From Harmothoe impar (lineage: Eukaryota > Annelida > Polychaeta > Phyllodocida > Polynoidae): a DNA stretch of 64,000 nt. The translations under genes and the position numbers were made by a program. Below, in pieces: positions 790 to 57,560 of the stretch. The notes beneath the pieces were generated by a model. It saw nothing but the letters and a program-made list of their open reading frames with translations, did no database searches and was not told the DNA's origin. The DNA lies in the NCBI GenBank assembly GCA_947462335.1, contig OX381720.1:1371501-1435500 (forward strand), written 5' to 3'. The first letter of the stretch is position 1, and each line of letters begins with the position of its first letter.

Positions 790-810
790 GTGTGACAGAT
801 GCACCACATC
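620..810. repeat. Dispersed repeat, inverted copy of 29420-29615
   Basis: The reverse complement of 29420-29615 aligns along this whole stretch. Shared blocks include GTTATGTAGTGCA versus GTCATGTAGTGCA and the near-identical TTTTAGAAGTAAGGTAAAGT. The two copies are not at mirror-symmetric places, so this is a dispersed repeat rather than part of the large inverted pairing. Confidence 0.7.
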
Positions 811-3479
811 TATTTGCTGAATCAGAACAGAACTTTTTAATGAGAATGGCTGTGTTATTTCACAACTAGTTAATATATGGTAAATAGACAAAATGAAAAC
901 TTTAAAAAAATGGCCATCTACAGTACTTTAGACAGGAGCTCTAGGCAACTGTAACTTTAACCTGCCCCTCCCCATGACTCTGATCCGTGTGTGTTGTATC
1001 AACAAACCCTAACTATTGCCGGCACATGCTGTCTGTGTACTGACAGGTTAGTGCCGTACCCTGGTGGGAAGGTGGGAAAGTACTGCCCCACTTGGAGTAG
1101 GATTGGAATCATATACCATTTCATTCCCATAATAATTCTGTCAAAACTGAGCCAAGCAAACTTAAAGATTTATAATGCAAATTCTAAAAACATGCCCAGT
1201 TGGACAAAATGAGTAGTGATAACCATTTTTATGAGAAGTTAGTTTAATGGATTTCTATTGGTCACTAATCTGATGAGTATGCATTTGAAAGTAAAAGTCT
1301 GGTACTCCTCTGTTCACTTCACAGATAGGGTTGAAGGGTTTTCCTGTGTGGTATATAGAGTAGACATGTGTGTTAAAGATGGCTTGTAAGTTTGATGATA
1401 TACAGCTCACACTTTAATCTGACAGCTGTGATATACAGGCGTCCCCATACCTGACCTGCCCTAGTTGGTTATGTTCAGGTATGCCAGGTTGTTTTCTGGG
1501 CAGAGTGACAGAAAAGGGTAAACATTAGTATTGGTGATCTTTGAGAAGCATCTTTCAGAGGCGAGAGTATAACAATTAATTTCAGCCTATACCTGTATTC
1601 AAGGAGTTAGCCTGCATACTGTTTCATTTGAGAAGGGGTTGGGCTGTCCTCCTTATATGCCTTCTTATACAAAGTAGGCTTTGTGTAAAATCAAAGGTTT
1701 GAGTAACTAAATGTTTGTTCAATAGCAAGTCCATTTAAATCAAATACAAAGGCTGCTTGGTGTGGGATTGGCACACTGTATAAAACATTTTTTGTATATT
1801 AGGCATATTAGGGATATTCTGATATATTAATGTCACACATCTGAACCTTCTGATCCTGCCAGCTTACCTGCTACAATCTGCTTAGATGGATCCATGTATA
1901 TCCTGCAATCATTTACTGAGGTGTGTGATGCACCTGTACTTGTGTGAGATATGTAGATAGGACAGGTGGAGTACCATGCAAGAACCAGCAGCAGCAATGG
2001 GTATAACATTCAGACATGAAGATTACTTCTGTAGAGTTATAACAGTGACACACAATAACATTGTGTCTCCATACTCTCTGCTCCCTCTGCAGCATAGGCT
2101 GTACTTTACCACGTCCCTTTCCAGCTACTAAATTCACACTGTTATCTTGCTAATCTATATAAAATAGTGGCAGCCCTGTTGTCTTGATTGAATCCCTGTA
2201 AGTAGACAGCACCTGATATACTTCAATGTAAACTGACAGGAAGCACACTAACCCTGTGCTATATGAGTGTGTTGTTGTTATCTGTTGTTCATTATTACAC
2301 CATGTGACATTAAACTACAATCTATGTCTCCATAACATGCTGTTCTCTATATGGATGAGCATCCTGTATGGACAGCTTTATCAGTGTATAACAACCATGA
2401 AATGTAATTTGTGAGCTCTAAACATAACAGGGTTCAATCATCTTTATGGAAAGGTTGATATGCACACAGGCTGTGTGAATAATTGTCTCCAGATTACCAC
2501 GTTGTGGAAGTATCTCCGTACAGTTCATAATGCGGTGACATATAGTATCAAGTCAGCTAGAATATAGTCTATTGAAAAATAGCATGAAATGTTACTTGTG
2601 GACTGCAATCAAATTAAATTACTCAATCGATTAAGTTTAGGATGTGGCAGTTTCATCATAGTTAAGGCCTGTGTTATTAGGGGTTTATCATGGGTTTATA
2701 TCTGAAGGTCAATGTAATCTTGTCCTCTTGACTTTTCCTTATTGTAATGTATTTGCCTTTCTGTGTAAGGCCACATTTCCAAAAACTCTGTTTTCCCACT
2801 CACCTAAAACCTTAGTTAGGATTGATAAACAGAGAATACCAAGACAAGCTTGAACATGAAATGATCATCAAAGACAGAAACCTAATTTCATATCAAATTC
2901 TCTTCCGTCAGGACTGACTGAAAAGTCCATCTTTATAATTGTATTTACCGCTTTGTGCCAGGAAGTAAACCATAAAGGCTTTCAGCAATCCCCTGACTTA
3001 AAAGTATCAAGGTTATTTTGCCCTGGTCAGAGGGCCTTCTTTACTGCCTCTATAAACTGATGCAGCACACAAAGTGCCTGAACCATCAAGACCACAGACA
3101 GCCAGGTCTGGGTTAACATCTTAGGTTACAGGCTATTAGAGAAAGGACCAAAAGGTTAATTAAACAGTTCAAGACAAGAGACTTTTGAAGGGTTGACATG
3201 AAGACAGTGCCTTATAGCCTCCTAAAGAAAGTCACCTTCTATTTGCTCTGAATATGGAGTTAGTCTTTAGTTGTGATTTTATGCAATTCAATCTAGTCAT
3301 CCGCCAGCTAACCACATATTGCACTCTTAAAAAGCAAAATTGCTTTTCGCACATCATTATCATACACACCGCGATTAAACTCATCAATAGTACATTCTGA
3401 GATTATAATATTGACCTTTAGCTTTTGGAGATGTTAGAGCCAATATACAATCATGTCTTTGTTGCAACGCCAATGTAAC

Positions 3480-4016
3480 ATTCAAGTAAACTGTGAAAGG
3501 GGTAGCCACAATTCACTGAAACTCTAGTGAATGGAAAAAAGTGCCTTTTAAACAACATTATTTTGACATCATTCTATTTCCAAAAGTCGTTTGAAATCAT
3601 GTAAAGATATAATGTAGGACAAAACTACTTTAACTGTGTTACTGCCTTTGGTTTTCTCTCTGCTCCTTTGAATTCAGACAAAAAATGTATAGAAAAAAAA
3701 CCACCAAACCTTGCTCTTTTCAGCTAGATATCATATTCCAATGCTCAATTCTACAAAAGTGTGTTTCAGACATTAGAGAAAGGAGCCTTTTTGTCCACAT
3801 TACTTAGGTTAACCAGTAAGAGCCTTTGTGGTGGGAGAACTGCAACACAAGCCCATTCATTTAGCATTGATTATATTCAGCTTCTCAAGATGATGACAGT
3901 GATTCTAGGATATTACAGCTGTTTATCAAAAACATACAAATACATTTTCTCATATAACCTATGAAGATCATTACAGAAGATGAAATAATGTTGACTAAAT
4001 CCTGAGGTAAGTTATT
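3480..4016. repeat. High-identity arm tract left of the Crypton
   Basis: Bases about 3720-4016 differ from the reverse complement of 54313-54605 at only about three positions by eye. Blocks 1-2 kb further out (about 1.9-2.5 kb) are nearer 80%. The short open frame 3761-3964 is also open in the partner (54558-54355), but this follows from DNA identity. One of the differences changes an Arg codon to Lys, so coding constraint is not demonstrated. Confidence 0.8.
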
Positions 4017-4035
4017 TAGAGAATAGAAAACGATG

Positions 4036-4146
4036 TTCTTCACGTCGAGACTGTCTGTTGGGCTATAACGCACGATGGTGTCCAGCCTTCATAAGTCTGG
4101 GGACCAGAGTGTGTTATAGGCCAACAGACAGTCGAGATGTGAAGAA
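4036..4146. repeat. Long terminal hairpin at Crypton left end
   Basis: Arms 4036-4073 and 4109-4146 are 38 nt each and pair with five mismatches, around a 35-nt loop. The arm ends are CTATAACGCAC (4063-4073) and GTGTGTTATAG (4109-4119). Similar motifs recur at 7584-7594 and 7615-7625 near the right end. By position these are candidates for recombinase binding or crossover sites; that role is inference. Confidence 0.75.
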
Positions 4147-4189
4147 GGAGTATTCTATTGTCTTTATAAAACGGCCTATAAAACATATT

Positions 4190-4455
4190 TGCTCAAACAC
4201 AGCATGAAATGCTGAAAAAACAACAATAAACTCACTTTATCTCGTCATGATTTGCTTGTGATGAAAGGTCAACTGGCCTGGACTAGGCTACTTCCGGGTC
4301 ACATTTGTAAGAAGGCCTCTGATTGGCTGACATATGGGGACGCTCTGAAATCTCCTGCCTGAGTTTTCCTTTCTCTTCAATGGCAAAGACCACTGAGAAT
4401 CTGCCCTGGAGAGTGACGTTCTTTCAATCTTCAGGCAGATGTTTGGTATAGTGTA
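4190..4455 (+). promoter_or_regulatory. Probable Crypton promoter/5' UTR region
   Basis: This stretch lies between the left hairpin and the first ATG. It contains an inverted CCAAT box in TGATTGGCTGA (4320-4330) and an ETS-like TTCCGGG (4291-4297). No TATA box is obvious at a fixed distance. Assignment rests on position and generic motifs only. Confidence 0.3.
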
Positions 4456-6465
4456 ATGGGTTCGGGCTGTGGATATCTGCTTGGAAACTATCAACATAGA
4501 AGCATGGCTGACATGGCTACGTCTGGTTTGTCACCTCCTCACCATGATTTTCTTTTGCATGAACTAGTATATGTCAACAAATATGGTAAGAAGTATGTGG
4601 GAATAATAGAGAATATCCACAGTAACTTGGGGTATAATGCCTTTATTGTTAGGAATGTGGATGATGGAACTGTGGACCAGTTGCTTAAGATGCAGTTGAC
4701 ACACATCAGAGATGGAACTAGCAGTGACTGGTTTTCAGATGTAATGGACATGGAACTACCAGCACTCTCTCCAGTGCATGTCCCACAGGTACCAGTCCAT
4801 GAGGAAGAAGAAGCAGTAGTCCCAGCACCCGAGCCTCAGGTGAAGCCAGCCTCTTCAAGGTTTGTCCCACAGTCAGAAGATGATATAGCCAAGCTGGCAC
4901 ATGCTTCAAAAAGTGAGAAGACTCACTTCCAGACCAAATGGGGTGTCTCAGTATTCAGAGGTGAGTTCTATTCTAAAGATTCGAAAAACATTTTCTGCCC
5001 CCCCCCTCCCAAACAGGGGTCTAATTGTTCAATCTCCCATCAGATGCCTACATTAAGCAATTTTCAATGGGTAAACATCTTAAAGGCCAAATTTAAAAAA
5101 AAGAAGTATGTTTTAGGTTTCACAAAAAAATCATTTTGGTCAAAGGATTTTGATTAAAAAAAAAAGAAGTTTCTTAAAAGAAAAAAAATTCTTTAAAAAA
5201 GCACACCTTTTTATTTATTTTGGCCTAAGGCAACATGTTCAATATCAATTCGTTTCCACAATATCAAGAAACAAATAAGTAAAATTAACTTTCTTTTTTC
5301 TTCTTTTTCCTCAGCTTGGCTGATTGAAAAGGGACTATTCGCAAACTTCGAAATTCAGCGATCGGATGTCCTGGCCCAACAGCTCAGGCAATTCTATGCG
5401 GAAGTGAGATGCCAGGATCGCAAGGAATACTCTTAATCCAGTCTGCTGTCAATCAGGGCAGCAATCCATCGTCACCTCACCATGCCTCCACACAGCCTGA
5501 CCATCAACATCCTCAAGGATATTTTATTCCTAGATGCCAACAACGTTCTCACAGGGCAAGTAAAAAATCTGAAGAAAAAAGGGCTTGACAAGTCAAAATC
5601 CTATCCCCCAATAACCAAGGCACATATGGCTCAGATATACCAGTCTGGGGCTGTGTCAGTTGATAATCCATTGGAGTTGCAGCGAAAGGTTTTCATAGAA
5701 ATTGTTATGCAGATGGGTCGGAGAGGCCGAGAAGGTCTACATGGTCTCCTCAAGGATCAGATTGTCTTTAAAGAAGATGATGGAGTGGAGTATGCTACTC
5801 TCGACCACAAGCCCTTGGAAAAAAATCACCAATCCATATCTGCAAACACAGATGAGCATGATCAAATCATGTTCGCTACTGGCACAGACCAATGCCCTGT
5901 GAAATCACTGAAACTGTACCTCAGTAAGCTAAACCCTCAACGTGAAAACCTGTTTCAAAGAGCCAAGGATGATAAGTGGGAAGGTTCCGAGATATGGTAT
6001 GAGAACAAGGTATTGGGTGTAAATTCTATTGGTAAATTAATGCCCACAATTTCTGCTGCTGCAAAACTTGATGTCATCTACACCAACCACAGTCTGCGTG
6101 TGACCTGTGTCACAACCCTCAGGCATGCAGGCATGCAGGCTAATGATATTAAGGCTGTGACAGGGCATCAGAACGTGGAAAGCATAGAGCGGTACTCGCG
6201 AGGTCCGAGCATGGCTGTGCGGAAAGAAATGTCCCATGTACTTGCGACAGCCACTTCTGGCAACAGTGAAGTTGGACTTGCAACCACTTCTGGCAACAGT
6301 GAAGTCAGTCGCACCATCCTACCAGAGGAGGAGACTTCACCCCTAAGCTCCCAGATTAACATTGCCAGGGCAAGCTGCACGAGCAACAGCATGGATGTGA
6401 CCAGATCCATGTTCAACAATGTTGTGTTCAATAACTCTACGATCAACATCTCATTCACCAAATAA
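4456..6465 (+). pseudogene. Crypton tyrosine recombinase, two exons, one nonsense codon
   Basis: Encodes the integrase-like enzyme that would excise and integrate the element through a covalent tyrosine-DNA link. Exon 1 is 4456-4960 (168 codons plus one base). Exon 2 starts at 5315 and runs to the stop at 6463-6465. Joining them keeps frame, giving about 551 codons, usual for animal Cryptons. Exon 1 holds a small globular segment (residues about 32-88, starting ELVYVNKYGKKYVG), then a Pro/Glu-rich linker and the start of the core-binding domain (SEKTHFQTKWGVSVF). In exon 2, counted from the ATG at 5482, catalytic Arg is R83 in GRRGREGL, then H203-x-x-R206 in NHSLRVT, H229 in TGHQN and nucleophile Y238 in ERYSRG. 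This resembles the DUF3504/ZMYM-KIAA1958 class. A TAA at 5434-5436 interrupts the frame just after KEYS in the core-binding domain; it is the only break seen. ATGs at 4456 and 4504 both have purine at -3 and G at +4. Confidence 0.85.
4961..5314 (+). other. Phase-1 spliceosomal intron in Crypton recombinase
   Basis: The donor is CAGAG|GTGAGT at 4960/4961. The acceptor is a long pyrimidine tract ending TTTTTCCTCAG at 5314. Splicing joins residues VFR to AWLIEKG, a reading that continues the core-binding domain typical of Crypton proteins. The unspliced frame runs on to 5157 into low-complexity codons, so that 233-residue reading is an artefact. The intron includes a C8TC3 run and A-rich stretches. 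Confidence 0.8.
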
Positions 6466-6613
6466 TTATCATAATTCTGAGATCTAGCAGGATATATATT
6501 ATTCCCCTATTTGATAGTAGGCCAAATGAATTATACATGATCATCAAAAGTGTCTGTAGGGGCCTATTAGCATATGTGTCTTATAGTAATTTATTGAAAA
6601 TACTGTTCTTCAT

Positions 6614-6619
6614 AATAAA
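6614..6619 (+). terminator. Candidate poly(A) signal of the Crypton gene
   Basis: An AATAAA hexamer lies about 150 bp beyond the recombinase stop codon, followed by a TG-rich stretch (GTTGTTGTT). Position and motif fit a 3' end; nothing else confirms use. Confidence 0.45.
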
Positions 6620-6655
6620 TGTTGTTGTTATTGAAAAACAGACTTGTTCTTGTCA

Positions 6656-7185
6656 ATGTAAGCTTTAATTTGATACCACATATGCCGTATCCCTCAATTA
6701 TTTCTATATATTTTTCATGTCCAAAAAAAAAAAGAAAAATAATAACTTCCTATCAACAAAAAATCACACTCACGTTCCCACTTTTTGGATATGTTCCTGG
6801 CGATGTAAGCTTTAATATGATACCACATATGCCCATATCCCTCCATTAGTTCTATAGATATTTAATGTCAAAAAAAAAAAAAAATCCTATCAAAAAAATT
6901 CACACTCACGTTCCCACTTTTTGGAAATGACCGGTACGTGGTTTTTCTTGTTCCTGGCGATGTAAGCTTTAATTTGATACCACATATGCCCATATCCCTC
7001 CATTAGTTCTCTAGATTTTTCTTATACCCCCCCATCTCCCCCCCCAAAAAAAAGTCCTATCAAACTATATTCACACTCACATTCCCACTTTTTAGAAACA
7101 ACCGGTATGTTGTTTTTCTTGTTCCTGGCGATGTAAGCTTTCATTTGATACCACATATGCCCATATCCTTAAATTTTTAACATAT
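6656..7185. repeat. Four-copy tandem repeat in Crypton 3' region
   Basis: Units begin with GATGTAAGCTTTAAT and continue with GATACCACATATGCC. Starts are at about 6656, 6802, 6959 and 7130, giving periods of 147-171 bp; the last unit is partial. Units differ by poly(A) and poly(C) runs and by an ACCGGTACGTGGTT-type insert. Short frames here come from the repeat. Confidence 0.85.
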
Positions 7186-7643
7186 TTATGAAGCCCAAAA
7201 GAAAGTGTAAAACAGTAGATGTTAGATCTACAAGCAAGGAGAGTAGTGTCACAGCAGTCCGTCAGGTGGCAGTACCTCTACCCAGTGTCAGCCAATCACA
7301 GCGCAGTTTACATCCTGCTTTGGCTCCGCCGCTCTGAGTTTGGAGGTAAACACAAACCAGCTGTTCCAAAAGAAAATGACTATTTCTCAGGATCTAGGGC
7401 ACGTATCTGCACCCAACACGCGCTAAATCGAACCTTGGGACCCATAGATTCCAGCTAATGGTGAGTTCTCCTTGAAAGAATCCATAGTTCCCCCCTGTTG
7501 ACCGATTCGCCGATTTCGGAAATCTCGACCGGGTACTGTCACAGTCACTCTGGCCACTCTGTGGCTCAGCGTGCACTGTTGCTCTATAACGAACGGCAGG
7601 TGACTTCTCCAGAGCTATAACGCACGGCCAACCGTTTTATAAT
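7186..7643. other. Crypton right-terminal region
   Basis: Non-coding. It contains AGCCAATCACAG (7291-7302), a CCAAT box on the plus strand, and the paired subterminal motifs CTATAACGAAC (7584-7594) and CTATAACGCAC (7615-7625). It ends CCGTTTTATAAT. The two subterminal motifs are in direct orientation 31 bp apart. Confidence 0.6.
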
Positions 7644-8439
7644 GTTCATTAGGGGTTGTAAAAAGTATATACATGCTGATAGACATGCACAATCTATTAA
7701 TGACTCTTAAGATGTGCTGCTGATTAGATAACATGGCTTAATGGATTCCCGAGAACACACTAAGTTCTTGCTAAATGATATTACATTAGACACAAACTGA
7801 TTATCCAAGTGCCTGGTTACTGTTGGTTTGATCATTCATCCGCACAGCCTATGTAATAAGGTAGGAGGGATCCCGTCCTCACTAAGTTTGGGATCATGGG
7901 CTGCTCCACCAGAGTCCATCTTGGTCCTATATGGGGTCATTTTCTTATTAGCTTTATACTTCCCTTCCCTTGGGGGGGGGGATTAAACAGGAACCAGCAT
8001 GGCTACTTCAAAAGCAGCAATTTCTGGCCAGGAATGTTCTGTATTTTGCAGTTTAAGGAATTTCATGTAGTGTATCCCTTCACTAGAACTACTGTTCACA
8101 AATGCCATCCTCATGAACTCCCTACTCACCTGCGTCTGACTCCCATTCCACTGATGTATTGCTGCTGTTAACACTCACTGAGGTGGGTATGCTGCTATAT
8201 CTGTGTTAGTACAGACAAGTCATGTTGGGAATCAGGTCCGGCTGACACATCATTACCCTACCTCACTATGCTGTCAGACTATAGTGCCCCCATGTCCTCC
8301 CTACTCACCTGTCTACACCAGTACCTGAATCACCTGCCTGATGCCTATTGTCTAACAGTGTACTGTGTGTGTGATGCAGCTGTTAACCCAGTCAGTCTGC
8401 TATGAGGGTATGATATTAACCATTATGGACCATTACTTG
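7644..8439. repeat. High-identity arm tract right of the Crypton
   Basis: Bases 7644-7870 differ from the reverse complement of 54312-54085 at about five positions by eye, and 7880-8439 pairs with 53770-53199 at similar identity. Similarity ends abruptly after GGACCATTACTTG at 8439. A 300-bp segment present only in the right arm (53773-54085) interrupts the pairing at about 7869. Confidence 0.8.
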
Positions 8440-8865
8440 AAAGTGTTGGAGAGCTTCTGTTTAAAGTTATCAATCTTTGTGGAAGATGGCTACAACCAGA
8501 GAACTGACACAACACTACTGTCCGGTTTAAAAAAGTTGATGTGCAATTATTAAGTTTAAGACTCATCATGTGGTTATTCAACAATTTATTGATACCCTGT
8601 TTATTATAGGATAGCCTGTGTAATGGAAACCATGTATATGTTGGGTTGCTCCACTTGACTTGTAAAGTGACTTCCATGTTACCAGGCCACAGTGTCTAGT
8701 GTTATTGTCAGCACAGCTGTGTAATATTCATCCAGGCTCATATGACTATAAGATTAGTACATGTCCCCAGTATGCACCATGTTCCAAAAACTGTCAGAAC
8801 CAGGCTTATGCTGAGCTGATTCTCTGTGCTGAGAAAGGAGCAACACTTGTGTTCTGACCCTCCAT
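8440..8865. other. Left-arm segment with no mirror partner
   Basis: Starts exactly where arm identity stops. The right arm has an unrelated sequence of about 200 bp (53000-53198) at the mirror place. Pairing resumes near 8870 (CCTCCATGGTGTGAAC). No gene or known repeat is recognised. One arm has probably suffered replacement or deletion. Confidence 0.55.
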
Positions 8866-8889
8866 GGTGTGAACCACAGTCTTTTTCTT

Positions 8890-10900
8890 AAGCTGCTTTT
8901 CTAGTCCCTAGTACAATAAGACCTTCATCCCTGTGAATCCCTTCTTCATTAGGCGACGATTCACCTTATAGTGTAATCCAGCTCCCAGGTTTAAAACCAA
9001 AATTGCAGCTTTTGTATTGGCATTACCCGAGGTTCTGCCAATTTCCAGGGTTCCCGCTCATGAACAAAACCTCATCTCTGACTCCTACATATCCCATTAA
9101 CTGTCCTTCCTATATCAGTGTACACATCCCAAGCTGCTCTGAGGCAGCCCAGGTTAGGGTATGGCAAAACAAAGCCCTAATTAGTACTGATCGATACCAT
9201 AGGGCCAAACAAACTTACACTGTACAGGAAACCACTTGTTGTCTGCTTTATTAAACTCGGAAATCAGCTGCAAGAAAAGTGCATGACAAATCTATTAAAT
9301 CTATTTTTAGTGAGGTAGAGGTCATCTGATTTACTGAATTATAGACAATATTTGATTATATTCAAGTAAAAAGGGGAGACAACAGTCTCCTAGATATGTG
9401 AGCACATCTTTTATTTGCCATTCTCTGAGTGTCAACATGATTATATGCTGAAGCAACATCTGCAAAAAGAAACAAGCATACCACACTTCACCCTGAAGGA
9501 AATGTCTTCAAATGGCAATACCTTAGACTTTTAGTCATCATGGGACAATGACATTTGCACACTTTTAATGCTTACTTCACATTAAACCTATTATCATTCA
9601 AATAAAGTTCTCATAAATATCAAAGCTTGTAGTCTTGATTAACTACTGAAGAGTCAATTTGGCGAGACCCACAGTGAAAGGAGGACCAAGTAGAGCAATA
9701 TAGCTTCCAGATAAAGGTTGGTTAGAATACAGCTCACCATAGACATAAATTTACAATGGAAACACCTTCATCTGATGGCCTTCTAGGCCGAGGTTAAAAT
9801 AGTAAGTATCTCATAACATCAACTTTGATTGTTTGAAAAGAACCAGATGTATTGATATTGGATATGTTGAATTTAATTTTCCTACCCAATGTCAAGGTAG
9901 GATCAGCTTTCAGCTTATTTAATTAACCTGAGACTTACCTCATCTTGGATCCAATATCACTACATTTTGTAATATTGCTAGCGGAGTCCTTTTGTTAAAG
10001 ATTACAAAAGATTCTCTCCAAAACAGACAGTCAAAATGTATTGCAGTATTAATGCTAGTAATCATCAATGTAATTCAGTCCTGTTACCATTGAAGTATTT
10101 CTAAGACCACTTTTTATTTCCTTGTATTTTGCTTCAATTCACTGTACAATTTGAGGATATTCTCTGTGCTTAGAAATGAGCAAAACTTTTCTCTTGAGCA
10201 ACTTTTCCAGGTCCCTAGTACAATTAGATCTTCACATCTATCCGCGCCCCTGTGGAGCCCTTCTGCATGAGCTGACGATTCACCTTATAGGGTAAGTTTA
10301 CAACCCAAATAGAACAACATGCAGCTTCTGTCTTGACATTGCCCGAGGTTCTGCCAATTTCCAGGGTTTCTGCTCATCAACAAAACCTCATCTCCGACCT
10401 ATCCCATTAACTTTCCTTTGTACAAAAGTGTACCCATTTAATCACTTCCGTCAAGCTGCTCTGAGTCAGACCAGGTTAGGGCTTACCAGAACAAGGCCCT
10501 ACTAATTACTGATCACTTCCTTAGGTCAAACAAGCTCACATTGTACAGAAACCTACTTCTTCCCTATCCTATTAAACTCAGAAAACTGCTGGATTAAAAC
10601 TGCAATGAAAATGCACAACACAATTATATGCTAATGCAATATCTGCAAAAAAACAAGCGTACCACATTTTACCCTGAAGAAAATATTATCAAATGGCAAT
10701 GCCTGAGATATTTAGTCATCATTGGACAATAGCATTTGCCCACTATTAATGCTCACTTCACATTGACCCTCTCATCATTTGAATGAAGTTCTCATACACA
10801 TCATAGAGTGTAGTCCTGATAAACTACTGAAGAGTAAATTTGGCAAAACCCACATTGAAAGGAGGACCAAATAGAGCAATATAGCTTTCAGATATGCGAC
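8890..10900. repeat. Tandem duplication inside the arm
   Basis: About 8890-9790 and 10190-10900 are diverged direct copies. Shared landmarks are GAGGTTCTGCCAATTTCCAG (9030 and 10350), ATTATATGCT followed by GCAACATCTGCAAAAA or its variant (9440 and 10630), and AAAGGAGGACCAA (9678 and 10858). The same tandem pair appears in the right arm (50440-51310 and 51780-52860), so the tandem event preceded the inverted duplication. No coding frame is conserved across the four copies. Confidence 0.8.
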
Positions 10901-12210
10901 CCACTTCATGCAAAATGTATCCACATCAAAGAACACCTCACCATGATCTTTTCACCTCAGTCCTCCAAGTGATGTAGTAGAACAGAGCATGTTACTCCAC
11001 ACATCATCAATGAAGGAAGGGTTGCCAGCATGCTAAGTAAGGGGATTACAGATGCAGTGCTGATTGTTGATTGATAGGTCATGATGTTGAAACGTTGTGA
11101 CGGTTGCATTTTCAGATGGATCTCAGATAATCATTTGTGTGTGACAGTCTGTCTAAAAGGGTGAATCCATCAGATCGGATGAACGTTCACAAGGTTTCCA
11201 ATGGATTCACGTCAGTGGATTCAGCCCTTTACATAGCACTTGCATAATTGGGTGTGATGTGCAAAACAGTGCGTAATGCAGAAGCAATGGAGATATATGA
11301 TTTTACTAAAGACTCTATTTATTTTGGGTATGAGTTAAGGCATTTCAACTGGCATTCGCCTAGAACAACCCCTGATATCATCCCCTAATCTTATTCAACC
11401 CCTGCTATGGTACATGACTACCCATCTTTCTGGAGCCTGATGCCTATTCAGAATAGTATAATATAAGTGTGTCAGCAGGCCATAATTTAAGGTCCCATGA
11501 TGTCTTGCTCCCCTCACAAGCTTCAGCTAGGGACATGTAACCAAAATCTATCTATATTGTTTCAAGATATCACTGAGTGACATTTACAGTCAACCATCTA
11601 TAAGAGCCAGATACTTCTCTTTAGCTGGGGCCGTGGCCAGGTTTAAATAATAGATTCTACATAATGTAGGCCACTGTTACATCCTACAACATATTTTGTT
11701 TGGTACAATATCTAAGATTTATGGTGTACGTCTTGGATTTCTTAATTACATCCTGAGATGTGCATCTAACGTCCCCAGTGGCAGAAGAGAATGACTCGTC
11801 CCTGTTTCCCTGAACAGAAAGTTTAATTGGAGAGTTCTTGGTGATGTCTGAAGTTTTTTTTGCTATTGCAGAAGTAGCGTCATGGTCAGATTCAAGTCGG
11901 ACCACCAGAGCTCACGCTTTCTGCATACACACATAACCCTTCCTGTCTCACTGATCCCAAACATAAAACATAAAAATCTACAGTATGTAAATCCTTCAAC
12001 TTATTTCTCATGCCTTTTGAAAATGCTTCAACAGTCAATCCAGAAGCAAGATATTTCAATTTCAAATTCAAATATGACCAGCAGAGCTCACATCTCCCAG
12101 AACCCCACTTTACCAGTCTCTTTGATGGTAGGAAATAAGCAGCTGTATGCACTAGAAGCTGAGACTGGAGGAAAGGACTCAGACAGGCAGACTTCAAGAC
12201 ACTCTTTAAC
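10900..12210. other. Arm sequence without a gene
   Basis: Pairs with 50440-49920 and 49520-49480. Well-matched parts include 11160-11230 (TGGATTCAC-type motifs) and 11330-11400. 11540-11880 has no clear partner. Short frames such as 11684-11905 are not conserved in frame. Confidence 0.5.
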
Positions 12211-12211
12211 G

Positions 12212-12375
12212 CTTTAAGGATGCATATTACTAAATGGGGCTGCTTTCAGGGCAGTCTCAACCTCACATGGTCAGCATGATGCATGTTTACAGCCCTGGTG
12301 AGTAACTCTGCAGGGTTGCATTTATGCATCATTACAGCCAAGGGCATTAAGGTTTCATACCATCCTTTAAAAGGA
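12212..12375. mobile_element. MITE-like copy, TGCATCATG family (left arm)
   Basis: Begins CTTTAAGGATGCAT and ends CCATCCTTTAAA. Inside are GCATGATGCATG and TGCATCATTACAGCC motifs around CAGCCCTGGTGAGTAAC. The mirror position in the right arm (48530-48775) holds a longer copy, so the insertion predates the palindrome and this copy has an internal deletion of about 70 bp. Confidence 0.7.
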
Positions 12376-44994: not shown

Positions 44995-45125
44995 ATAGCA
45001 TATAAAAACCAATCTATTAAAAGATGCATTCATGTCAATCTCTGATGTTATACTCTGCCTGTACAACAAATGTCTTATGTCAAGCACCTTCCCCTCTAAA
45101 TGGAAGGCCGGCACAATGGTACTTC
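44995..45125 (+). pseudogene. Fragment of a second LINE reverse transcriptase
   Basis: In the frame through 45017-45125 the translation reads LLKDAFMSISDVILCLYN, then SSTFPSKWKAGTMVLLPKK. This is the conserved N-terminal RT motif in which a Phe-Pro-x-x-Trp-Lys step precedes a V-x-x-(P/L)-K-K block. It differs from the corresponding EHGIFPDEWSKALVVPIPK of the intact LINE, so it is another family. A stop lies upstream in the same frame and a MITE abuts the downstream end; only about 40 residues remain. Confidence 0.55.
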
Positions 45126-45129
45126 TCCC

Positions 45130-46040: not shown

Positions 46041-46149
46041 AGATACAGCTGCATTATGCACCTCTATTGCTCTATTATCTATGATTTATGTGACCAGTGT
46101 GCTGGCCTTGATTGGGCTAGATCATCAAAAAGCGTACCAGACATAAAGG

Positions 46150-48500: not shown

Positions 48501-48529
48501 GGACATGATATATTAAAGCAGCATGTGTC

Positions 48530-48775
48530 CTTTTAAAAGATGGTATGAAACCTTAATGCCCTTGGCTGTAATGATGCATGAATGCAACCCTGCCAAGTTG
48601 CTCACCAGGGCTGTATTCATGCATCATGCTGACCATGTGAGGTTGAGAGTCCCCTGAAAGGCCGGCATGATGCATGAAACTAGCAACTGCCAGTTACTTA
48701 TCAGGACTTCATCAGTGCATCAACAAATGTTGTCTTTTAGCAACACGGCATCATTAAAGCGTTAAAGAGTGTTTT
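48530..48775. mobile_element. MITE copy, TGCATCATG family (right arm)
   Basis: Mirror partner of 12212-12375, longer by about 70 bp. Modules ATGATGCATGAATGCAACC...TATTCATGCATCATGC and GGCATGATGCATGAAAC...TCAGTGCATCAACA. It ends GCATCATTAAAGCGTTAAAG. Confidence 0.75.
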
Positions 48776-49019
48776 GAAGTCTGCCTGTCTGAGTCTTTTC
48801 CTCCAGTCTCAGCTTCTAGCGCATACAGCTGCTTTTTACCTGAGAAAGAGACTGATAAAGTGGGGTTCTGCGAAGTGTGAGCTCTGCTGGTCACATTCAC
48901 ATTTGAAATTGAAATATCCTTCTTCAGGATTGACTTTTGAAGCATTTTGAAAAGGCATGGGAAATTAGCTGAAGGATTTACATACTGGAAGGGTTATCTG
49001 CAGGTTGGGGGAATCCTAC

Positions 49020-49470
49020 CTTTAACCCCATGCCGGGAGAAAAGCAAGTGAGGGGGTTTCTCCCCTTGGTTTTGGGTGGATATACATGTAATTTTAGGTT
49101 CAACCAGAAAATCTGATTTGCTAATACCTTACCATTATTTGCTGAAAAACATTCACCTCCATACAAGTAGACAATTGAATTGGCTATGTACATGTGAATG
49201 GGCTAGTCTTAATGACAAAATATAGCCTAAATAAGGTACATTTAAATGTGGACTCCAACCCCCCTCTCCCACTCCTCCCCAGCCCACCTGTATAAGATAC
49301 TGCACTGGGAAAACTCCCCTTGGAGGTGCAGACCGGCGGCGGCCCTTTTCTCTACCGGCGGCCAGAGATAAGGGCAGGAGGCGGACCTGAGGGCTGCACT
49401 AAGTAAGGGGAGATTTCCCCTTGCTGGAAGAAACCCCACTGTAGGCTAATATACCTATAATGGAAAATAT
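49020..49470. mobile_element. GC-rich insertion unique to right arm, weak TIRs
   Basis: The left arm joins the flanking blocks directly near 11940. GTGAGGGGGTTTCTCC (49047-49062) is an imperfect inverted match to GGAAGAAACCCCAC (49426-49439). The interior is richer in G+C than the arm and contains GACCGGCGGCGGCCC. Minus-strand frames (49242-49439, 49352-49558) have no recognisable domain. A MITE-like non-autonomous element is likely. Confidence 0.5.
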
Positions 49471-49519
49471 CCCGGATTGTCAAGGCCTGATGTGTGTATC
49501 CAGAAAGTATGAGCTCTGG

Positions 49520-51833
49520 TGGTCCTATTGAATCTGAAATTGAAATATATTCTCTCATCTCCTGCTTGGGAAGTAGTCTGGATTTAATATGAAAATATTG
49601 TGATAAGGCAGGGGATGTTAGATGAAGGATTTATACAATGTTAAGTTTCCCAAAGTTTGACATTTCGTGAAAATGGCAAAAGCCTCGAGTAATATGGCTA
49701 AGCAGAACATGACACTACTGTTACTTCAGTTATCCTCAAAAGCCCCTCCACTTTCAACAAAATGATATATCGTTGACTGCCTGGAGGTTTTTTCCCCTGT
49801 TGTTGTGTAATTTCAAAATAATTCTGAGCAAATTAAATTGATATACATATCTATAAAGATATATTTTGGTGCAAACTAAGAGGGTAACATGTCAAATCTA
49901 GAGTGATTAGCTTAAGCTTGTGAGGGGAGCAAGACATCATGCATAGGAACCAGGCTCCAGAAAGACGGGTAGTCCTGTACTATAGCAGGGGTTGATTAAG
50001 ATAAGGGGATGCTATCAGGGGTTGTTCTAGGCAGATGCCAGTTGAAATGCCTTAATTTATACCCAAATTGAGCACTGTTTAGCACATCACACCCAATAAT
50101 GCAAGTGCTATGTAAAAGGCTAAATCCACTGAAGTGAATGCATTGGATCGGACAAGATCCGCCTTTAGGTTTAACCTTCTGAACGTTCATCTGATCCGAT
50201 GGATTCCCCCTTTTAGACAGACTGTCACACACAAATGATTCTCTAGGATCCGTCTAAAAATGCAACCGTCACAAAGTTTCAACATCATGACTGATCAATC
50301 AACAATCTGCACTGCATCTGTAGTCCCCTACTTAGCATGCTGGCAGCCCTTCCTTCATTGATGATGTGTCAGTAACATGCTCTGTTCTACTCCATCACGT
50401 GGAGGATTGAGGTGACAAGGTCATGGTGAGGTGTTCTTTGATGTGGATACATCTTGCATGAAGTGGGTGGCATATCTGAAAGCTATATTGCTCTATTTGG
50501 TCCTCCTTTCACTGTGGTTTTTGCCAAATTCACTCTTCAGTAGTTTATCAGGACTACAAGCTATGATATTGATGAGAATGATTAGAGGTTTAATTTTAAG
50601 TAAGCATTAGTAGTGTGCAAATGTCATTGTCCAATGTCTCAAGTGTTGATAACATTTTCTCCAGGGTAAAATGTTGTACGCTTGTTTTTTTTGCAGATAT
50701 TGCCTCAGCATATAATCATATATAGTCAACCACAGAAAATTGCAAGTATTAGATGTGCTCACATAGCTAGGAGTCGGTTGCTTCCTCTTCTTACATGAAC
50801 ATTTTCAAATATTGTCTATACTACAGTTCATCAGAAGACCTCAAACTAACTATGGATAGATTTAATATATTTTTGATACACTTTTCATGCAGCTGTTCTC
50901 CAAGTTCAATAGGGCTGAAACCAGTTGGTTCCTATACAGTGTGAGCTTGATTTGCCCTAAGGGATGGATCAGTTATAAGTAGGGCCGTGTTTTGCCATAC
51001 CTAACCTGAGCTGGCTCAGAGCAGCTTAACGGAAGTAGTTAAATGTGTGCGCTGTGGTACAAAGGAAAGTTAATGACATAGGTAGGAGTCGGAGATGAGG
51101 TTTTGTTGTTGAGCGGGAACCCTGGAAATTTGCAGAACCTCGGGTAATGCCAAGAGAGAAGCTGCATGGTGTTCTATTTGGGTTTTAACTTGGAGCTGGA
51201 TTACCCTATAAGGGGCTTTGTCACCTCATGCAGAAGGGCTCCACAGGGTGAGGATAGACATGAAGGTCTTATTGTACCAGGGACCTGGAAAAGTTGCTTA
51301 GAAGAAAAGTTTTGCTCATTTCTAAGCACAGAGAATATCCTCAAATTGCACAGTGAATTGAAGCAAAATACAAGGAAATAAAAAGTGGTCTTAGAAATAA
51401 TTCAATGGTAACAGGACTGAAATGCATTGGTGATTACTAACAGTAATACTGCACTACATTTTTACCGTCTGTTGAGGAGAGAATCTTTTGTAATCTAAAC
51501 AAAAGGACTCCTCTAGCATTATTACAAAATGTAGTGACATTGGATCCAAGATGAGGTAAGTCTCAGGTGCATTAAATAAGCTGAAAGCTGATCCTACCTT
51601 GACATTGGGTAGGAAAATTAAATCAAACATACCCAATATCAATACATCTGGTTCTTTTCAAACAATCAAGGTTGATGTTATGAGATACTCACTATTTTTA
51701 CCTCGGCCTAGAAGGCCATCAGATGAAGGTGTTTACATTGTAAATTTATCTCCATGGTGAGCTGTGTTCTAACCAACCTTTATCTGGAAGCTATATTGCT
51801 CTACTTGGTCCTCCTTTCACTGTGGTTTTTTTT
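49520..51833. repeat. Right-arm block paired with 9660-11900
   Basis: Includes the mirrored inner copy of the tandem duplication (50440-51310) and single-copy arm sequence. For example, 51480-51640 is the inverse of 10010-9880 (TGACATTGGGTAGGAAAATTAA). No coding evidence; the 71-codon frame at 51166 is not maintained in the left arm. Confidence 0.7.
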
Positions 51834-52130
51834 GAGTTTATAAAGTCTCTTTATTTCCATATGGTGTTTTTCTAAAGAAGACAGTACAATTCAATAGGCG
51901 TTAAGCCTCAATCAGGTAAATCATGTGTTTATGTAATTACTACAATCAGGAGTATATGAAAATGCAGTACCAATGGCCTATCACATTCAGGCAATATGTT
52001 GGTGATCAGATAATGTGCAATGTATATACCAGTTTGTTGTAGGACAACATAACAGTTTAATAATAAAATGGTTGAGGATCTACCTAGGTCCGAGTGAGCT
52101 ATTGGGATTTAGCTTCACTTTTTTTTCGCA
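51834..52130 (-). mobile_element. Short 3' retroposon fragment, minus strand
   Basis: Absent from the mirror site at about 9670 and from the tandem copy at 50520, where CACTGTGG-T-run-GCCAAATT is continuous. Read on the minus strand it ends with AAATAAAGAGACTTTATAAACTC and an A-run, as expected for target-primed retroposition. T-runs on both plus-strand sides may hide a target duplication. It is probably the 3' end of a LINE family other than the one at 40527, whose end is different. Confidence 0.6.
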
Positions 52131-52139
52131 AAATTGTCT

Positions 52140-53772
52140 CTTCGGTAGTTCATCAGGACAACAAGCTATGATATTTGTGAGAACTTAATTTGAATGATGA
52201 GAGGTTTAATGTGGAATAAGCATTAATAGTGTGAAAATGTCATTGCATCTCAGGCATTGCCATTTGAAAACATTTCCTTCAGGGTGAAGTGTGGTATGCT
52301 TGTTTCTTTTTGCAGATGTTGCTCCAGCATATAATCATGTCGACACTCAGAGAATGGCAAGTATAAGATGTGCTCACATATCTAGGAGACTGTTGTCTCC
52401 TCTTTTTACATGAATATATTCAAATATTGTCTATAATTCAGTAAATCAGATGACCTCTACCTTACTACATATAGATTCAATAGATTTGTCATGCACTTTT
52501 CTCGCAGCTGATTTCCGAGTTTGATAAAGCAGACAACAAGTGGTTTCCTGTATGGTGTAAGTTTGTTTGGCCCTAAGGTATCGATTAGTACTAATTAGGA
52601 CTTTGTTTTGCCATACCCTAACCTGGCCTGCCTCAGAGCAGCTTGGGATGAGTGCACTGATATACAAAGGACAGTTAATGGGATAGGTAGGAGTCAGAGA
52701 TTAGGTTTTGTTCCTGAGCAGTAACCCCGGAAATTGGCAGAACCTCTGGTAATTCCAATACAAAAGCTGCAATTTGGGTTGTAAACCGGGGAGTGAATCA
52801 TTGCCTCATGAAGAAGGGTTCCACAGGGTGGGAACAAACATGAAGGTCCTAATAGTAACCTGGAAAAGGGATGAAGGTCTTATTGTACTAGGGACTAGAA
52901 AAGCAGCTTAGGGAAAGGACTGTTGTTCACACCATGGAGGGTCAGAACACAGGGTCAAGTGTTGCTCATGTTGGACATGGACTAATACTTTAGTCATATG
53001 TGCCTTGATGAATATGCCGAGATGGGACTATTAAGAGGACAACTGTGGCCCTGGCATATGCACAATATAGTTGGAGAAGTTATTTTCAAATTTGTGGATA
53101 TGGTGTTAAAATCCACATGAAGAGCAAAATATAATAAAGTAGTACTGGTCTACTAGCATGTTAGAATAAATGGTCAGTGGTAAGCGGGAGCCCTGGCCAA
53201 GTAATGGTCCATAATGGTTAATATCATACCCTTGTAGCAGACTGACTGGGTTAACAGCTGCATCACACACACAGTACACTGTTAGACAATAGGCATCAGG
53301 CAGGTGATTCAGGTACTGGTGTAGACAGGTGAGTAGGGAGGACATGGGGGCACTATAGTCTGACAGCGTAGTGAGGTAGGGTAATGATGTGTCAGCCGGA
53401 CCTGATTCCCGACATGACCTGTCTGTACTAACACAGATATAGCAGCATACCCACCTCAGTGAGTGTTAACAGCAGCAATACATCAGTGGAATGGGATTCA
53501 GACACAGGTGAGTAGGGAGTTCATGAGGATGGCATTTGTGAACAGTAGTTCTAGTGAAGGGATACACTACATGAAATTCCTTAAACTGCAAAATACAGAA
53601 CATTCCTGGCCAGAAATTGCTGCTTTTGAAGTAGCCATGCTGGTTCCTGTTTATTCCCCCCCCCCCCCCCCCCAAGGGAAGGGAAGTATAAAGCTTATAA
53701 CAAAATGACCCCATATAGGACCAAGATTGACTCTGGTGGAGCAGCCCATGATCCCAAACTTAGTGAGGACGG
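52140..53772. repeat. Right-arm block paired with 7880-9650
   Basis: 52220-52920 mirrors 9560-8870, and 53199-53772 mirrors 8439-7870 at about 98%. 53000-53198 is unrelated to the left arm. A C-run of about 18 at 53657-53674 faces a shorter G-run at 7972-7981. Confidence 0.75.
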
Positions 53773-54085
53773 GAGAAATGGGCAAAGCATCAATACTATT
53801 CACATATCTAAGGTCAGTTGGTCTCACAATGAGCAGACTCCATATATTGTGGTATTGATATTTAAAATGCAATCAATCACTGGAATGGGTAATAATTCGG
53901 GAGGTAGCTAAGCAATTGAATTTATTGGTGTCAGAAGGAGAGAATCTGAATGCACTACTACTCCAAACTGTAAAACACCCACACAGCCAGTCCCCCTGCT
54001 CCTGCCATTAGTCACCTCACAAGGGCTGTGGGTGCAGAAAGGTAGTTTCTGGTTAGACATATGTGCCATCACTCCTCCCTCCTAC
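53773..54085. mobile_element. 300-bp insertion unique to right arm
   Basis: The left arm is continuous at GTAGGAGGGATCCCGTCC (7861-7877), while here the equivalent halves are separated by about 300 bp. The part 53950-54040 resembles the dispersed repeat at 15430-15720 and 18350-18610. No terminal repeats are clear. Confidence 0.55.
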
Positions 54086-57000
54086 CTTATTACATAGGCT
54101 GTGCGGATAAATGATCAAACCAACGGTAACCAGGCACTTGGATAATCAGTTTGTGTCTAATGTAATATCATTTAGCAAGAACTTAGTGTGTTCTTGGGAA
54201 TCCATTAAGCCATGTTATCTAATCAGCAGCACATCTTAAGAGTCATTATTAGATTGTGCATGTCTATCAGCATGTATATACTTGTTACAACCCCTAATGA
54301 ACAATAACTTACCTCAGGATCTAGTCAACATTACTTCATCTTCTGTAATGATCTTCATAGGTTATATGAGAAAATGTATTTGTATGTTTTTGATAAACAG
54401 CTGTAATATCCTAGAATCACTGTCATCATCTTGAGAAGCTGAATATAATCAATGCTAAATGAATGGGCTTGTGTTGCAGTTCTCCCACCACAAAGGCTCT
54501 TACTGGTTAACTTAAGTAATGTGGACAAAAAGGCTCCTTTCTCTAATGTCTGAAACACACTTTTGTAGAATTGAGCATTGGAATATGATATCTAGCTGAA
54601 AAGAGCAAGGTTTGGTGTTTTTGTTTTCTATACATTTTTTGTCTGAATTCAAAGGAGCAGAGAGAAAACCAAAGGCAGTAACACAGTTAAAGTAGTTTTG
54701 TCCTACATTATATCTTTACATGATTTCAAACAACTTTTGGAAATAGAACGATGTCAAAATAATGTTGTTTAAAAGGCACTTTTTTCCATTCACTAGATTT
54801 TCAGTGAATTGTGGCTACCCCTTTCACAGTTAACTTGAATGTTACATTGGCGTTGCAACAAAGACATGATTGTATATTGGCTCTAACATCTCCAAAAGCT
54901 AAAGGTCAATATTATAATCTCAGAATGTACTATTGATGAGTTTAATCGCGGTGTGTATGATAATGATGTGCGAAAAGCAAATTTGCTTCTTAAGAGCGCA
55001 ATATGCGGTTAGCTGGCGGATGACTAGGTTGAATTGCATAAAATCACAACTTAAGACTAATTCTCTATTCAGAGCAAATAGAAGGTGATTTCCTTTGCTC
55101 CTCTCTAATAGCAGGCTAGAAGGCACTGTCTTCATGTCAACCCTTCAGAAGTCTTGTGTCCTGAACTGTTTAATTAACCTACTGGTCTTTTCTCTAATAG
55201 TCTGTAACCTGAGATGTTAACCCAGACCTGGCTGTCTGTGGTCTGGATGGTTCAGGCACTTTGTGTGCCACAATAGTTTATAGAGGCAGTAAAGAAGGCT
55301 TCCTGACCAGGGCAAAATAACCTTTAACCTTGGTACTTTTAAGTCAGGGGCTTGCTGAAAGCCTTGATGGTTTACTTCCCGGCACAAAGAGGCAAATACG
55401 ATTATTAAAATGGACTTTTCAGTCAGTCCTGACGGAAGAGAATTTGATTTGAAATTAGGTTTCTGTCTTTGTTGATCATTTTATGTTCAAGCTGTCTTGG
55501 TTTTCCCTGTTTATCAATCCTAACTAAGGTTTAAGGTTGGTGGGAAAACAGAGTTGTTTTGGAAATGTGCCTTTACACAGAAATGCAAATACATCACAAT
55601 AAAGAAAAGTCAAGAGGACAAGATTACATTGACTTTCAGACATAAACCCATGATAAAACCCTAAGCACACAGGCCCTTACCATCATGTAATTAGAGTCTT
55701 GCCACATCCTAAACTTAATCAATTGGGTAATTTAATTTGATTGCAGTCCATAAGTTACATTTCATGCTATTTTTCAATAGACTATATTCTAGCTGACTTG
55801 ATACAATATGTCACTGCATTATGAACTGTACGGAGATACTGTTACTACTTGGCAATCTAGAGACAAATATTCACACAGCCTGTGTGTATATCATCCTTTA
55901 CATGTAGACTATTAAACCTAGGTTTGTTTAGATCACACATATTACATTTTAAGATCTTTGTACCCTGATAAAGCTGCCCATACAGGATGCTCATCCATAT
56001 AGAGAGCAGCGTGTTATGTCGACATAGATTATAGTTTAATGTTACATGGTGTAATAATGAACCCCAGATAACAACAACACAGTCATATAACAAAGGGTTA
56101 GTGTTGGGCCTGTCAGGGTATCATGAAGCACACTATGGTGCTGTCTACTTATACAGGTTCTATCCAGATGATTACAACAAGGCTGCCACTAGTTTATATA
56201 CATGTGCATGGTAATGGTGGGAATTTAGTAGCTGAAAAGGGACAGGAGGGAGCGCAGAGTATAGAAAACGAGGTAATTGTGAGTCACTGGTGTGACTACA
56301 AAAGTTATCATCATGTCTGAATGTCTGCTGCTGGTACCTGCATAACATGACACCTGTCCTGTATATCTAACACAATTACAGGTTGTTTACCACCTTGGTA
56401 AATGGTTGCAGCATGAACGTGCATGTATTGGATGGAATTATAGCAGGTAAGCTGGCAGGATTGGAAGGTCAGATGTGTGACATTAATATCTCAGAATATT
56501 CCTGTGCCTAATGTACAAAATATGACACAGTGTGCCAATCCCACACCAAGCAGCCTTTGTATTTGATTTCAATGGACTTGCTATTGAACAAACATTAAGT
56601 TACTCAAACCTTTGATATCACACTAAGCCTGCTTTGTAAAGAAGGCATATAAGGAGGACATCCCCACTCATTCTCAAATAAAACAGTATGTAGGCTAACT
56701 CCTTGAATACAGGTAAAGGCTGAAATAAATTGTTATACTCTTGCTTCTGAAACTTTTCAATATGCTTGTCAAAGATCATCAATAATTATGTTTGCCCTCT
56801 TCTGACACTCTGCCCAGGAAACAACCTGGCATACCTGAACATAACCAACTCTTGCAGGGTGGGTATGGGGAGGCCTCTATATTACATCTGCCAGGTTGAG
56901 GTTTCTACTATACATCATCAAACTGACAGGCCACCATTAACACAGCTCTCTGCACCACACAGGAATACCCTGGAACCCTATCGGCAAAGTTAACAAAGGA

Positions 57001-57560
57001 GAACAGAACTCTTACTAACATACTCATCAGATTAGTGACCAATATAAATCAATCAAAGGAGTTTCTTTGTAAAAATAGTAATAACTACTCATTTAATCCG
57101 AGTGCGCACGTTTTTTGATTTTTGTATTAACATTTTAAGTTTGCTTGGTTCAGTTTTGACTTGCCAGAATGGTTATGGGAAGTGACTCGTACATGGTTCC
57201 AATCCTACTCCATGTGGGGCTGTACCTTCCCACCTTCTCACCAGGGTGCAGCACTGTACTGGCAGCACTGAGACAGAACCTGTCAGCACAGTTGTCAGCA
57301 GTAGTTAGGGTTTGTTGATACAACACAGAGACTGGAGTCTATGGGGAGGGGAAAGGGGTTCGGCACTAGCGGACCAGAGCTTGTGTCTAAAGCACTGTAG
57401 GAGGCCACTTTTCATTGTTTCCCTCATGTCTTACACAGAACAACCTTCAAGTAATGGAAATGTTAACTAGGACTACAAATGATATTGATATTCTTCTCAC
57501 AATGTGTGGCTGTTAAGTTTAAGCAAACAGACACGGTTCACCTGTAACACAGCACAGAGG
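54086..57560. repeat. Outer right arm paired with 790-4016 and 7644-7870
   Basis: Contains the empty Crypton site at about 54312/54313. Identity to the left arm falls outward: about 99% at 54313-54605, about 90% at 55020-55270, and about 80% by 55850-56400. Small frames here mirror left-arm frames but none looks like a protein gene. Confidence 0.8.

What the first reader, a model, noticed from the sequence alone, without database searches (positions are those of the whole stretch)
790..57560. A 57-kb imperfect palindrome fills most of the window
Dozens of blocks pair left to right in reverse complement and in exact mirror order from about 790/57560 inward to about 24400/27240. I see no description of a named element with this form, and the arms are non-coding. 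Causes could be an old inverted duplication, a decayed giant foldback element, or an assembly joining two divergent haplotypes head to head.
Basis: seen in the sequence. Interest (0 to 1): 0.88.

Follow-up and report, generated by a model that had tools for sequence, protein, structure and literature searches.

The report
Giant ancient chromosome palindrome, transposon-split
The 57-kb palindrome is the middle of a mirror-image duplication at least 593,000 bases long near the start of a chromosome-sized contig from what is very likely an animal; it likely arose when a broken chromosome end folded back and copied itself, and its right arm is split by a 48,000-base transposon.

Summary
The palindrome is real, but 57 kb is only its core. 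The window lies 1.4 Mb from the start of a 65.5-Mb contig. Around an unduplicated 2,865-bp centre (24,388-27,252), inverted homology runs to at least C20:1.150/1.743 Mb (593 kb; the outermost point rests on one probe). In the 294 kb read, 59 blocks chain in mirror order (direct control 5), with no N; mean ungapped identity is 82%, with patches at 95-99%. One paired gene, a GPCR, was found; the window's arms show only transposon genes. A foldback element is rejected; a haplotype misjoin is unlikely but not excluded without reads. Best reading: an old fold-back inverted duplication, patchily homogenised by gene conversion (inferred). The right edge at 57.6 kb is the terminal repeat of a 48,262-bp KDZ DNA transposon: at least four elements of 34-48 kb have related ends (74-100% identity), each contains the KDZ exon, two of four show 7-bp target-site duplications (7/7, 6/7), and two genes are conserved. 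Passages I read give 30.3-31.7 kb for giant KDZ elements. Whether the palindrome reaches the telomere was not tested: 22 searches with the 0.3-Mb probe did not complete.

The parts
1..24387 (+). Left palindrome arm, inner part; it continues leftward to at least C20:1,150,139 (window about -221,400)
24388..27252 (.). Unduplicated centre (spacer) of the palindrome, 2,865 bp between the innermost paired blocks
   Evidence: innermost pair 24319-24387/27321-27253; no mirrored match inside the spacer at the thresholds used, except one 50-bp self-palindrome at 25206-25255 (E 0.004)
27253..57567 (-). Right palindrome arm, inner part; it resumes at about window 105,867 beyond the 48-kb insertion and continues to at least C20:1,743,702
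3273..8395 (.). Tract paired at 97-99% with the right arm (Crypton-like insert and one 301-base gap excluded), dropping to 65% in the next 250 bases; candidate gene-conversion tract (inferred)
   Evidence: 250-base windows
4017..7639 (+). 3.6-kb insertion in the left arm only, carrying a tyrosine-recombinase ORF (5482-6465); Crypton-like (name recalled)
   Evidence: (PF00589 E 5e-07)
40605..43565 (+). LINE ORF, 986 aa (endonuclease plus reverse transcriptase), in the right arm; a fragment of a related LINE lies at 14224-14625 in the left arm
57593..57599 (+). Candidate 7-bp target-site duplication GTTCTTG (partner GTTCTTA at 105862-105868, outside the window; 6/7)
57600..57736 (+). Left terminal inverted repeat of the 48,262-bp KDZ transposon (57600-105861); 100% identical to the right TIR at 105725-105861
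57600..64000 (+). In-window part of the giant KDZ transposon; the rest lies to the right of the window
   Evidence: collinear, with gaps, along its length with the 45,391-bp C13 copy
63451..63729 (+). First candidate conserved exon of the transposase gene; KDZ catalytic exons lie at 67727-71259, outside the window
   Evidence: no Pfam family for this exon itself
59706..60906 (.). 63-bp minisatellite, 18.8 copies, inside the transposon

Best explanation
The 57-kb palindrome is the core of an inverted duplication of at least 593 kb on one contig, which likely formed when a broken chromosome end folded back and copied itself, and whose right arm is split at 57,600 by a 48-kb KDZ DNA transposon. 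Shown: two arms in mirror order around a 2.9-kb unduplicated centre, 1.397 Mb from the start of a 65.5-Mb contig; arm-specific insertions (Crypton-like left, LINE right, KDZ right); mosaic identity from below 60% to 99%. Inferred: (1) the fold-back origin, from the short spacer and near-terminal position; (2) later gene conversion between arms, from abrupt 97-99% tracts and near-identical GPCR exons beside more diverged non-coding DNA; (3) cut-and-paste insertion of the KDZ element, from its TIRs and flanking 7-bp repeats. The arms themselves have no function demonstrated here; their likely effect is to hold two GPCR copies in a conversion-prone pair.
For: 59 mirror-order blocks over 294 kb against 5 in the direct control. 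A probe at C20:1.150 Mb matches only itself, C20:1.742-1.744 Mb on the minus strand and one 123-bp piece 28 kb away (3 candidates, all scored). The arm block tested matches only this locus. No N in 294 kb. GPCR pair with 3 of 367 residues different, dN 0.002-0.005 and dS 0.050-0.065, with an intron that aligns only in pieces at 68-85%. Identity overdispersed: sd 0.103 against a binomial 0.027 over 217 windows. The spacer of 2,865 bp lies inside the 766-70,466 bp range (median 3,428) of 21 sequenced human fold-back inverted duplications (PMC3907307, passages). KDZ: PF18758 E 1.5e-28 on 498 residues of joined exon pieces; the 137-bp TIR in 4 inverted pairs; the KDZ exon inside all 4 pairs; collinearity of the C20 and C13 copies; 956 codons with dN 0.038, dS 0.164.
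Against: Whether the palindrome runs on to the contig start, as fold-back predicts, is unknown: 22 searches with the 0.3-Mb probe did not complete and C20:1-400 reads N. The 593-kb extent rests on one probe, whose three pieces are not all in mirror order (two of three); the right side between 187 and 371 kb was not read. Probes at 0.9 and 1.2 Mb hit dispersed repeat arrays and showed no mirror partner in the rows listed (25 of 862 and 26 of 466 candidates scored, lists cut). The spacer length today need not be that at origin. GPCR dS of 0.05-0.065 alone would also fit divergent alleles. Patchy identity could reflect constraint rather than conversion; no outgroup was available, and the GPCR intron holds a minisatellite. 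The KDZ insertion site is not clean: the two right-arm flanks overlap by at least 113 bp of left-arm sequence and match each other at 72% over 145 columns. The C13 and C4 element copies lack a matching 7-bp flank.
Confidence: 0.6

Rival explanations
1. Interstitial inverted segmental duplication by replication template switching or inverted insertion, not tied to a broken chromosome end. The locus is duplication-rich, and the palindrome is one of several local duplications.
For: Direct duplications of 82-98% identity lie at window -97,312 to -69,591 and weaker ones (70-83%) at -29,110 to -7,853; a stretch at C20:0.90 Mb has 99% copies at 0.837 and 0.627 Mb.
Against: A collinear span of at least 593 kb with one short spacer is long for a single template switch (recalled, not tested).
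Confidence: 0.25
2. Assembly artefact: two divergent haplotypes joined head to head.
For: The tested arm block occurs twice in the assembly, once per arm, plus one short diverged match. Large arm-specific insertions and GPCR dS of 0.050-0.065 could be allelic in a hyperdiverse animal (recalled). PMC7953838 (passages) warns that erroneous scaffolding can create artificial palindromes; PMC5916493 (passages) counts 23 palindromic blocks in one rotifer assembly and none in a relative's.
Against: No N in 294 kb and 163 of 217 windows below 90% identity; an outer probe at 66-76%; direct duplications within a single arm.
Confidence: 0.12
3. Decayed giant foldback transposon whose arms are its terminal inverted repeats.
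For: Overall mirror shape; a spacer between long arms.
Against: The one arm block searched is not dispersed (3 places, all on C20 at this locus); homology runs past both proposed ends; GPCR genes lie in the arms.
Confidence: 0.02

Closest known systems
Human fold-back inverted duplications (Hermetz et al. 2014, PMC3907307; passages seen)
   Same: Two inverted copies on one chromosome around a short single-copy spacer (theirs 766-70,466 bp, median 3,428; here 2,865 bp), near a chromosome end
   Different: Theirs are recent rearrangements in patients; this one is decayed to about 82% and sits in a reference assembly; a terminal deletion or new telomere is not shown here
Gene palindromes of primate Y chromosomes, nematodes and asexual animals (PMC7953838, passages; PMC1803023, abstract)
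   Same: Inverted gene pairs with signs of conversion or maintained similarity between arms
   Different: Near-identical arms or annotated gene blocks there; here lower mean identity, mostly non-coding, on a contig not known to be sex-linked
KDZ (Kyakuja-Dileera-Zisupton) DNA transposons, including giant KDZ of Ectocarpus and Chlamydomonas (PMC12477816, PMC12810828: passages; PMC12730594: passages and section 3.2.1)
   Same: KDZ transposase, long TIRs (139-241 bp in Cryptococcus), short TSDs (7 bp Kyakuja, 8 bp Zisupton and Dileera, 4-8 bp in Cryptococcus), large size
   Different: 34-48 kb here against 30.3 kb (Ectocarpus maximum) and 31.7 kb (Chlamydomonas) in the passages seen; very likely an animal host; a second conserved gene of unknown function

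Membership tests
Fold-back inverted duplication | Two inverted collinear copies on one chromosome | tested here: met
Fold-back inverted duplication | Short unduplicated spacer at the axis | tested here: met
   2,865 bp; published range seen
Fold-back inverted duplication | Distal copy ends at a new telomere or translocation | tested here: inconclusive
   C20:1-400 reads N; 22 searches with the 0.3-Mb probe did not complete
Fold-back inverted duplication | Short inverted homology at the spacer edges | tested here: inconclusive
   69 bp at 87% (24319-24387/27321-27253), but decayed arms cannot be told from the original fold-back homology
Foldback transposon | Dispersed copies in the genome | tested here: not met
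   (one 569-bp arm block): 3 matches, all at this locus
Foldback transposon | Sharp outer ends with a target-site duplication | tested here: not met
   Homology continues past 773 and 57567
KDZ DNA transposon | KDZ transposase domain | tested here: met
   PF18758 E 1.5e-28, 100.4 bits against cut-off 26.6, on joined exon pieces
KDZ DNA transposon | Terminal inverted repeats bounding the transposase in several copies | tested here: met
   4 TIR pairs, each containing the KDZ exon
KDZ DNA transposon | 7-8 bp target-site duplication | tested here: inconclusive
   2 of 4: C2 7/7, C20 6/7; C13 and C4 no match
Kyakuja subgroup | CA..TG termini and 7-bp TSD | tested here: met
   10 of 10 ends found begin CACCTTAT; TSD in 2 of 4 pairs; definition
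Kyakuja subgroup | No TIRs (as described for two fungal families) | tested here: not met
   137-bp TIRs here; so not filed as Kyakuja. No transposase tree was made.

The most novel reading that the evidence does not exclude
The first 1.4 Mb of this chromosome is a fossil fold-back: a broken end healed by copying about 1.4 Mb of itself, persisted as a neutral palindrome while gene conversion kept islands (a GPCR pair among them) alike, and then hosted one of the largest KDZ transposons known, a 48-kb two-gene element of an animal lineage still under selection.
Probability: 0.3. Interest if true: 0.72.

Novelty: new variant of a known kind. Interest (0 to 1): 0.52.

Why it matters
A decayed palindrome of half a megabase or more that still shows its spacer would let the fold-back model, known from patients and tumours, be tested as a route of chromosome-end evolution. 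Its mosaic identity offers a natural record of gene conversion between ageing arms. The KDZ family exceeds the sizes given for this superfamily in the passages I saw and offers four related copies with related ends, enough to study how a cut-and-paste element moves 48 kb.

Tried and rejected
Giant foldback element: rejected, because the one arm block tested is not dispersed and the pairing has no sharp outer ends.

A 57-kb palindrome nested in a separate larger one: my first reading. It was dropped once the 48-kb insertion at 57,600-105,861 explained the second apparent axis.

Hidden exons in the arms: of 486 ungapped arm-to-arm frame comparisons (at least 30 codons; p < 0.003, at least 6 differences, no stop), four passed: two overlapping LINE frames, one GPCR exon and one 33-codon frame at -41,537. 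The other GPCR exon did not pass, so the test misses some exons. No Rfam family or tRNA was found in the window.

Outer probes at C20:0.9 Mb and 1.2 Mb: both landed on dispersed repeat arrays (167 and 169 matches, 25 of 862 and 26 of 466 candidates scored, lists cut) and were uninformative. The probe at 1.15 Mb worked. The probe at 0.3 Mb (L043) did not complete.

Species: not identified.

Empty site of the KDZ insertion: not cleanly recoverable; the right-arm flanks carry small extra duplications.

Stops in the C13 transposon copy: 3 of the 12 stretches compared contain one stop each in C13, perhaps beyond the exon edge; these codons were left out of dN/dS, so intactness of the C13 gene is not shown.

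Literature: KDZ searches; palindrome searches; all in the open PMC library, listings and selected passages only. No KDZ element above 31.7 kb was seen there. The Zisupton paper (Bohne 2012) was not looked up; Craig 2023 is not held, so its 31.7 kb is known only as cited in PMC12477816. Passages of PMC6431247 and PMC9297572 were also seen.

Second conserved gene of the element: only sub-threshold hits, such as HMG_box E 0.0036 and Homeodomain E 0.12; function unassigned. Its genome-wide search did not complete.
Full report
WHAT IS THERE. The window lies at C20:1,371,501-1,435,500 of a 1.51-Gb, 736-contig genome; C20 is 65.5 Mb. Window coordinates below may be negative or above 64,000 for flanking DNA. 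Self-alignment confirms inverted blocks in mirror order from 773/57567 inward to 24387/27253. I read 100 kb to the left and 130 kb to the right. Over these 294 kb the chain contains 59 inverted blocks with 53,753 aligned columns and 74.7% identity counting gaps; the direct-orientation control gives 5 blocks and 2,306 columns, and the reversed-not-complemented control none. The outermost pair read is -97,975/187,279, near the left limit of the DNA fetched. A 2-kb probe from C20:1,150,001 (window -221.5 kb) matches itself, one 123-bp piece 28 kb away, and three minus-strand pieces at C20:1,742,331-1,743,702 at 66-76%, two of the three in mirror order. The palindrome therefore reaches at least 593 kb on this one probe; the right side between 187 kb and 371 kb was not read.

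THE CENTRE. The innermost paired block is 24319-24387/27321-27253 (87%, 69 bp). The 2,865 bp between have no mirrored match at the thresholds used beyond one 50-bp self-palindrome.

WHY IT SEEMED TO STOP AT 57.5 kb. Position 57,600 is the start of a 137-bp sequence repeated, inverted and 100% identical, at 105,725-105,861. With this 48,262-bp stretch set aside, the two apparent axes become one. The 137-bp end has 10 matches in the genome, a lower bound, at 74-100% identity: four inverted pairs spanning 48,262 (C20), 45,391 (C13), 34,429 (C2) and 46,451 bp (C4) (sizes), plus two ends on C15 that share their flanks and lie 2.35 Mb apart. All ten begin CACCTTAT. Flanking 7-mers match 7/7 in C2 and 6/7 in C20, and not in C13 or C4. 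The C20 and C13 copies align along their length in one order, with many gaps. Conserved plus-strand frames in C20 carry KDZ-like catalytic motifs (motif recognition recalled); joined, 498 residues match PF18758 at E 1.5e-28. A 211-residue exon has 16 matches in the genome, 15 without stops, and four of them lie inside the four TIR pairs. Between C20 and C13, 956 codons of this gene have dN 0.038 and dS 0.164, and 257 codons of a second, minus-strand gene have dN 0.038 and dS 0.149; 3 of the 12 transposase stretches hold one stop each in C13. Named relatives of the transposase come from amphioxus, fish, mussels, a priapulid, a coral and others, at 30-40% identity (31 proteins, one fungal).

ARMS. 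Other asymmetries are ordinary transposons: a Crypton-like insert at 4017-7639 on the left (PF00589) and a LINE at 40605-43565 on the right (PF00078). Inside the window no non-transposon gene was found. Outside it, both arms carry a rhodopsin-family GPCR: exons between -63,861 and -61,356 (minus) and between 163,868 and 165,873 (plus). They differ at 3 of 367 residues, with dN 0.002-0.005 and dS 0.050-0.065, while the intron between aligns only in pieces at 68-85%, confounded by a minisatellite.

MOSAIC IDENTITY. In 217 windows of 200 ungapped bases the mean is 82.1% and the sd 0.103, against a binomial 0.027; 54 windows reach 90% and 10 reach 95%. In the window, 3273-8395 (insert excluded) pairs at 97-99% and falls to 65% in the next 250 bases. 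I infer gene conversion between arms; constraint on non-coding DNA is not excluded without an outgroup.

MECHANISM. A single inverted duplication with a few-kb unduplicated centre close to a chromosome end is what the fold-back model predicts. In 21 sequenced human cases the spacer was 766-70,466 bp, median 3,428 (PMC3907307, passages). Here it is 2,865 bp and the axis is 1.397 Mb from the contig start. The model further predicts that the distal copy runs to a new telomere. I could not test this: the search with the 0.3-Mb probe did not complete in any of 22 attempts, and the first 400 bases of C20 read N. An interstitial inverted duplication remains the main rival.

ARTEFACT? PMC7953838 warns that erroneous scaffolding can generate artificial palindromes, and PMC5916493 reports 23 palindromic blocks in one rotifer assembly and none in a relative's (passages). 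Against an artefact here: no N in 294 kb and 163 of 217 windows below 90% identity, and direct duplications inside one arm. GPCR dS alone would not exclude alleles. Reads would decide.

COMPARISON. As a palindrome it works like known gene palindromes and fold-back duplications, but is more decayed and mostly non-coding. As a transposon it is a KDZ member. Its 7-bp duplication and CA..TG ends resemble fungal Kyakuja families, which have no TIRs (PMC12730594, section 3.2.1), so I do not file it as Kyakuja. The Ectocarpus paper (passages) gives 30.3 kb as its largest KDZ and cites 31.7 kb in Chlamydomonas; the elements here are 34-48 kb, part of which may be nested insertions.

On re-reading my calls I corrected the GPCR count (367 residues, not 368), added that one of three pieces of the 1.15-Mb probe is out of mirror order, gave the TIR identity range, widened the published TSD range, and told the C13 stops.

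Noticed in passing
L040 and L041 (C20:1,200,001-1,202,500 and C20:900,001-902,500): Dispersed arrays of units about 0.9-1.2 kb long on many large contigs, often in both orientations within one array, mostly 76-95% identical in the rows listed.
   Followed up: no
C20:900,001; 836,713; 626,699: A stretch of 2.1-2.4 kb repeated three times in direct orientation at 99% identity, hence likely recent duplications near the contig start.
   Followed up: no
C15:60,519,603 and C15:62,872,478: Two KDZ element ends 2.35 Mb apart in opposite orientation with nearly identical flanks and interiors: a duplicated piece or a split element.
   Followed up: partly
window -97,312 to -69,591: Overlapping direct duplications at 82-98% identity in the outer left arm.
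   Followed up: no
window 4012-4169: A 158-bp self-complementary stretch (75%) at the left edge of the Crypton-like insertion.
   Followed up: no
window 85,500-98,536 (L016, L017), minus strand: Second conserved gene in the giant KDZ element; exons with weak HMG-box and homeodomain likeness, below cut-offs.
   Followed up: partly
flanks of KDZ ends on C13, C15 and C4: Five of ten element ends are preceded by GGTG, making GGTGCACC at the border; all five belong to copies without a demonstrated 7-bp duplication.
   Followed up: no
L044 (C20:1-400): The first 400 bases of the contig read N, a gap or a withheld stretch.
   Followed up: no
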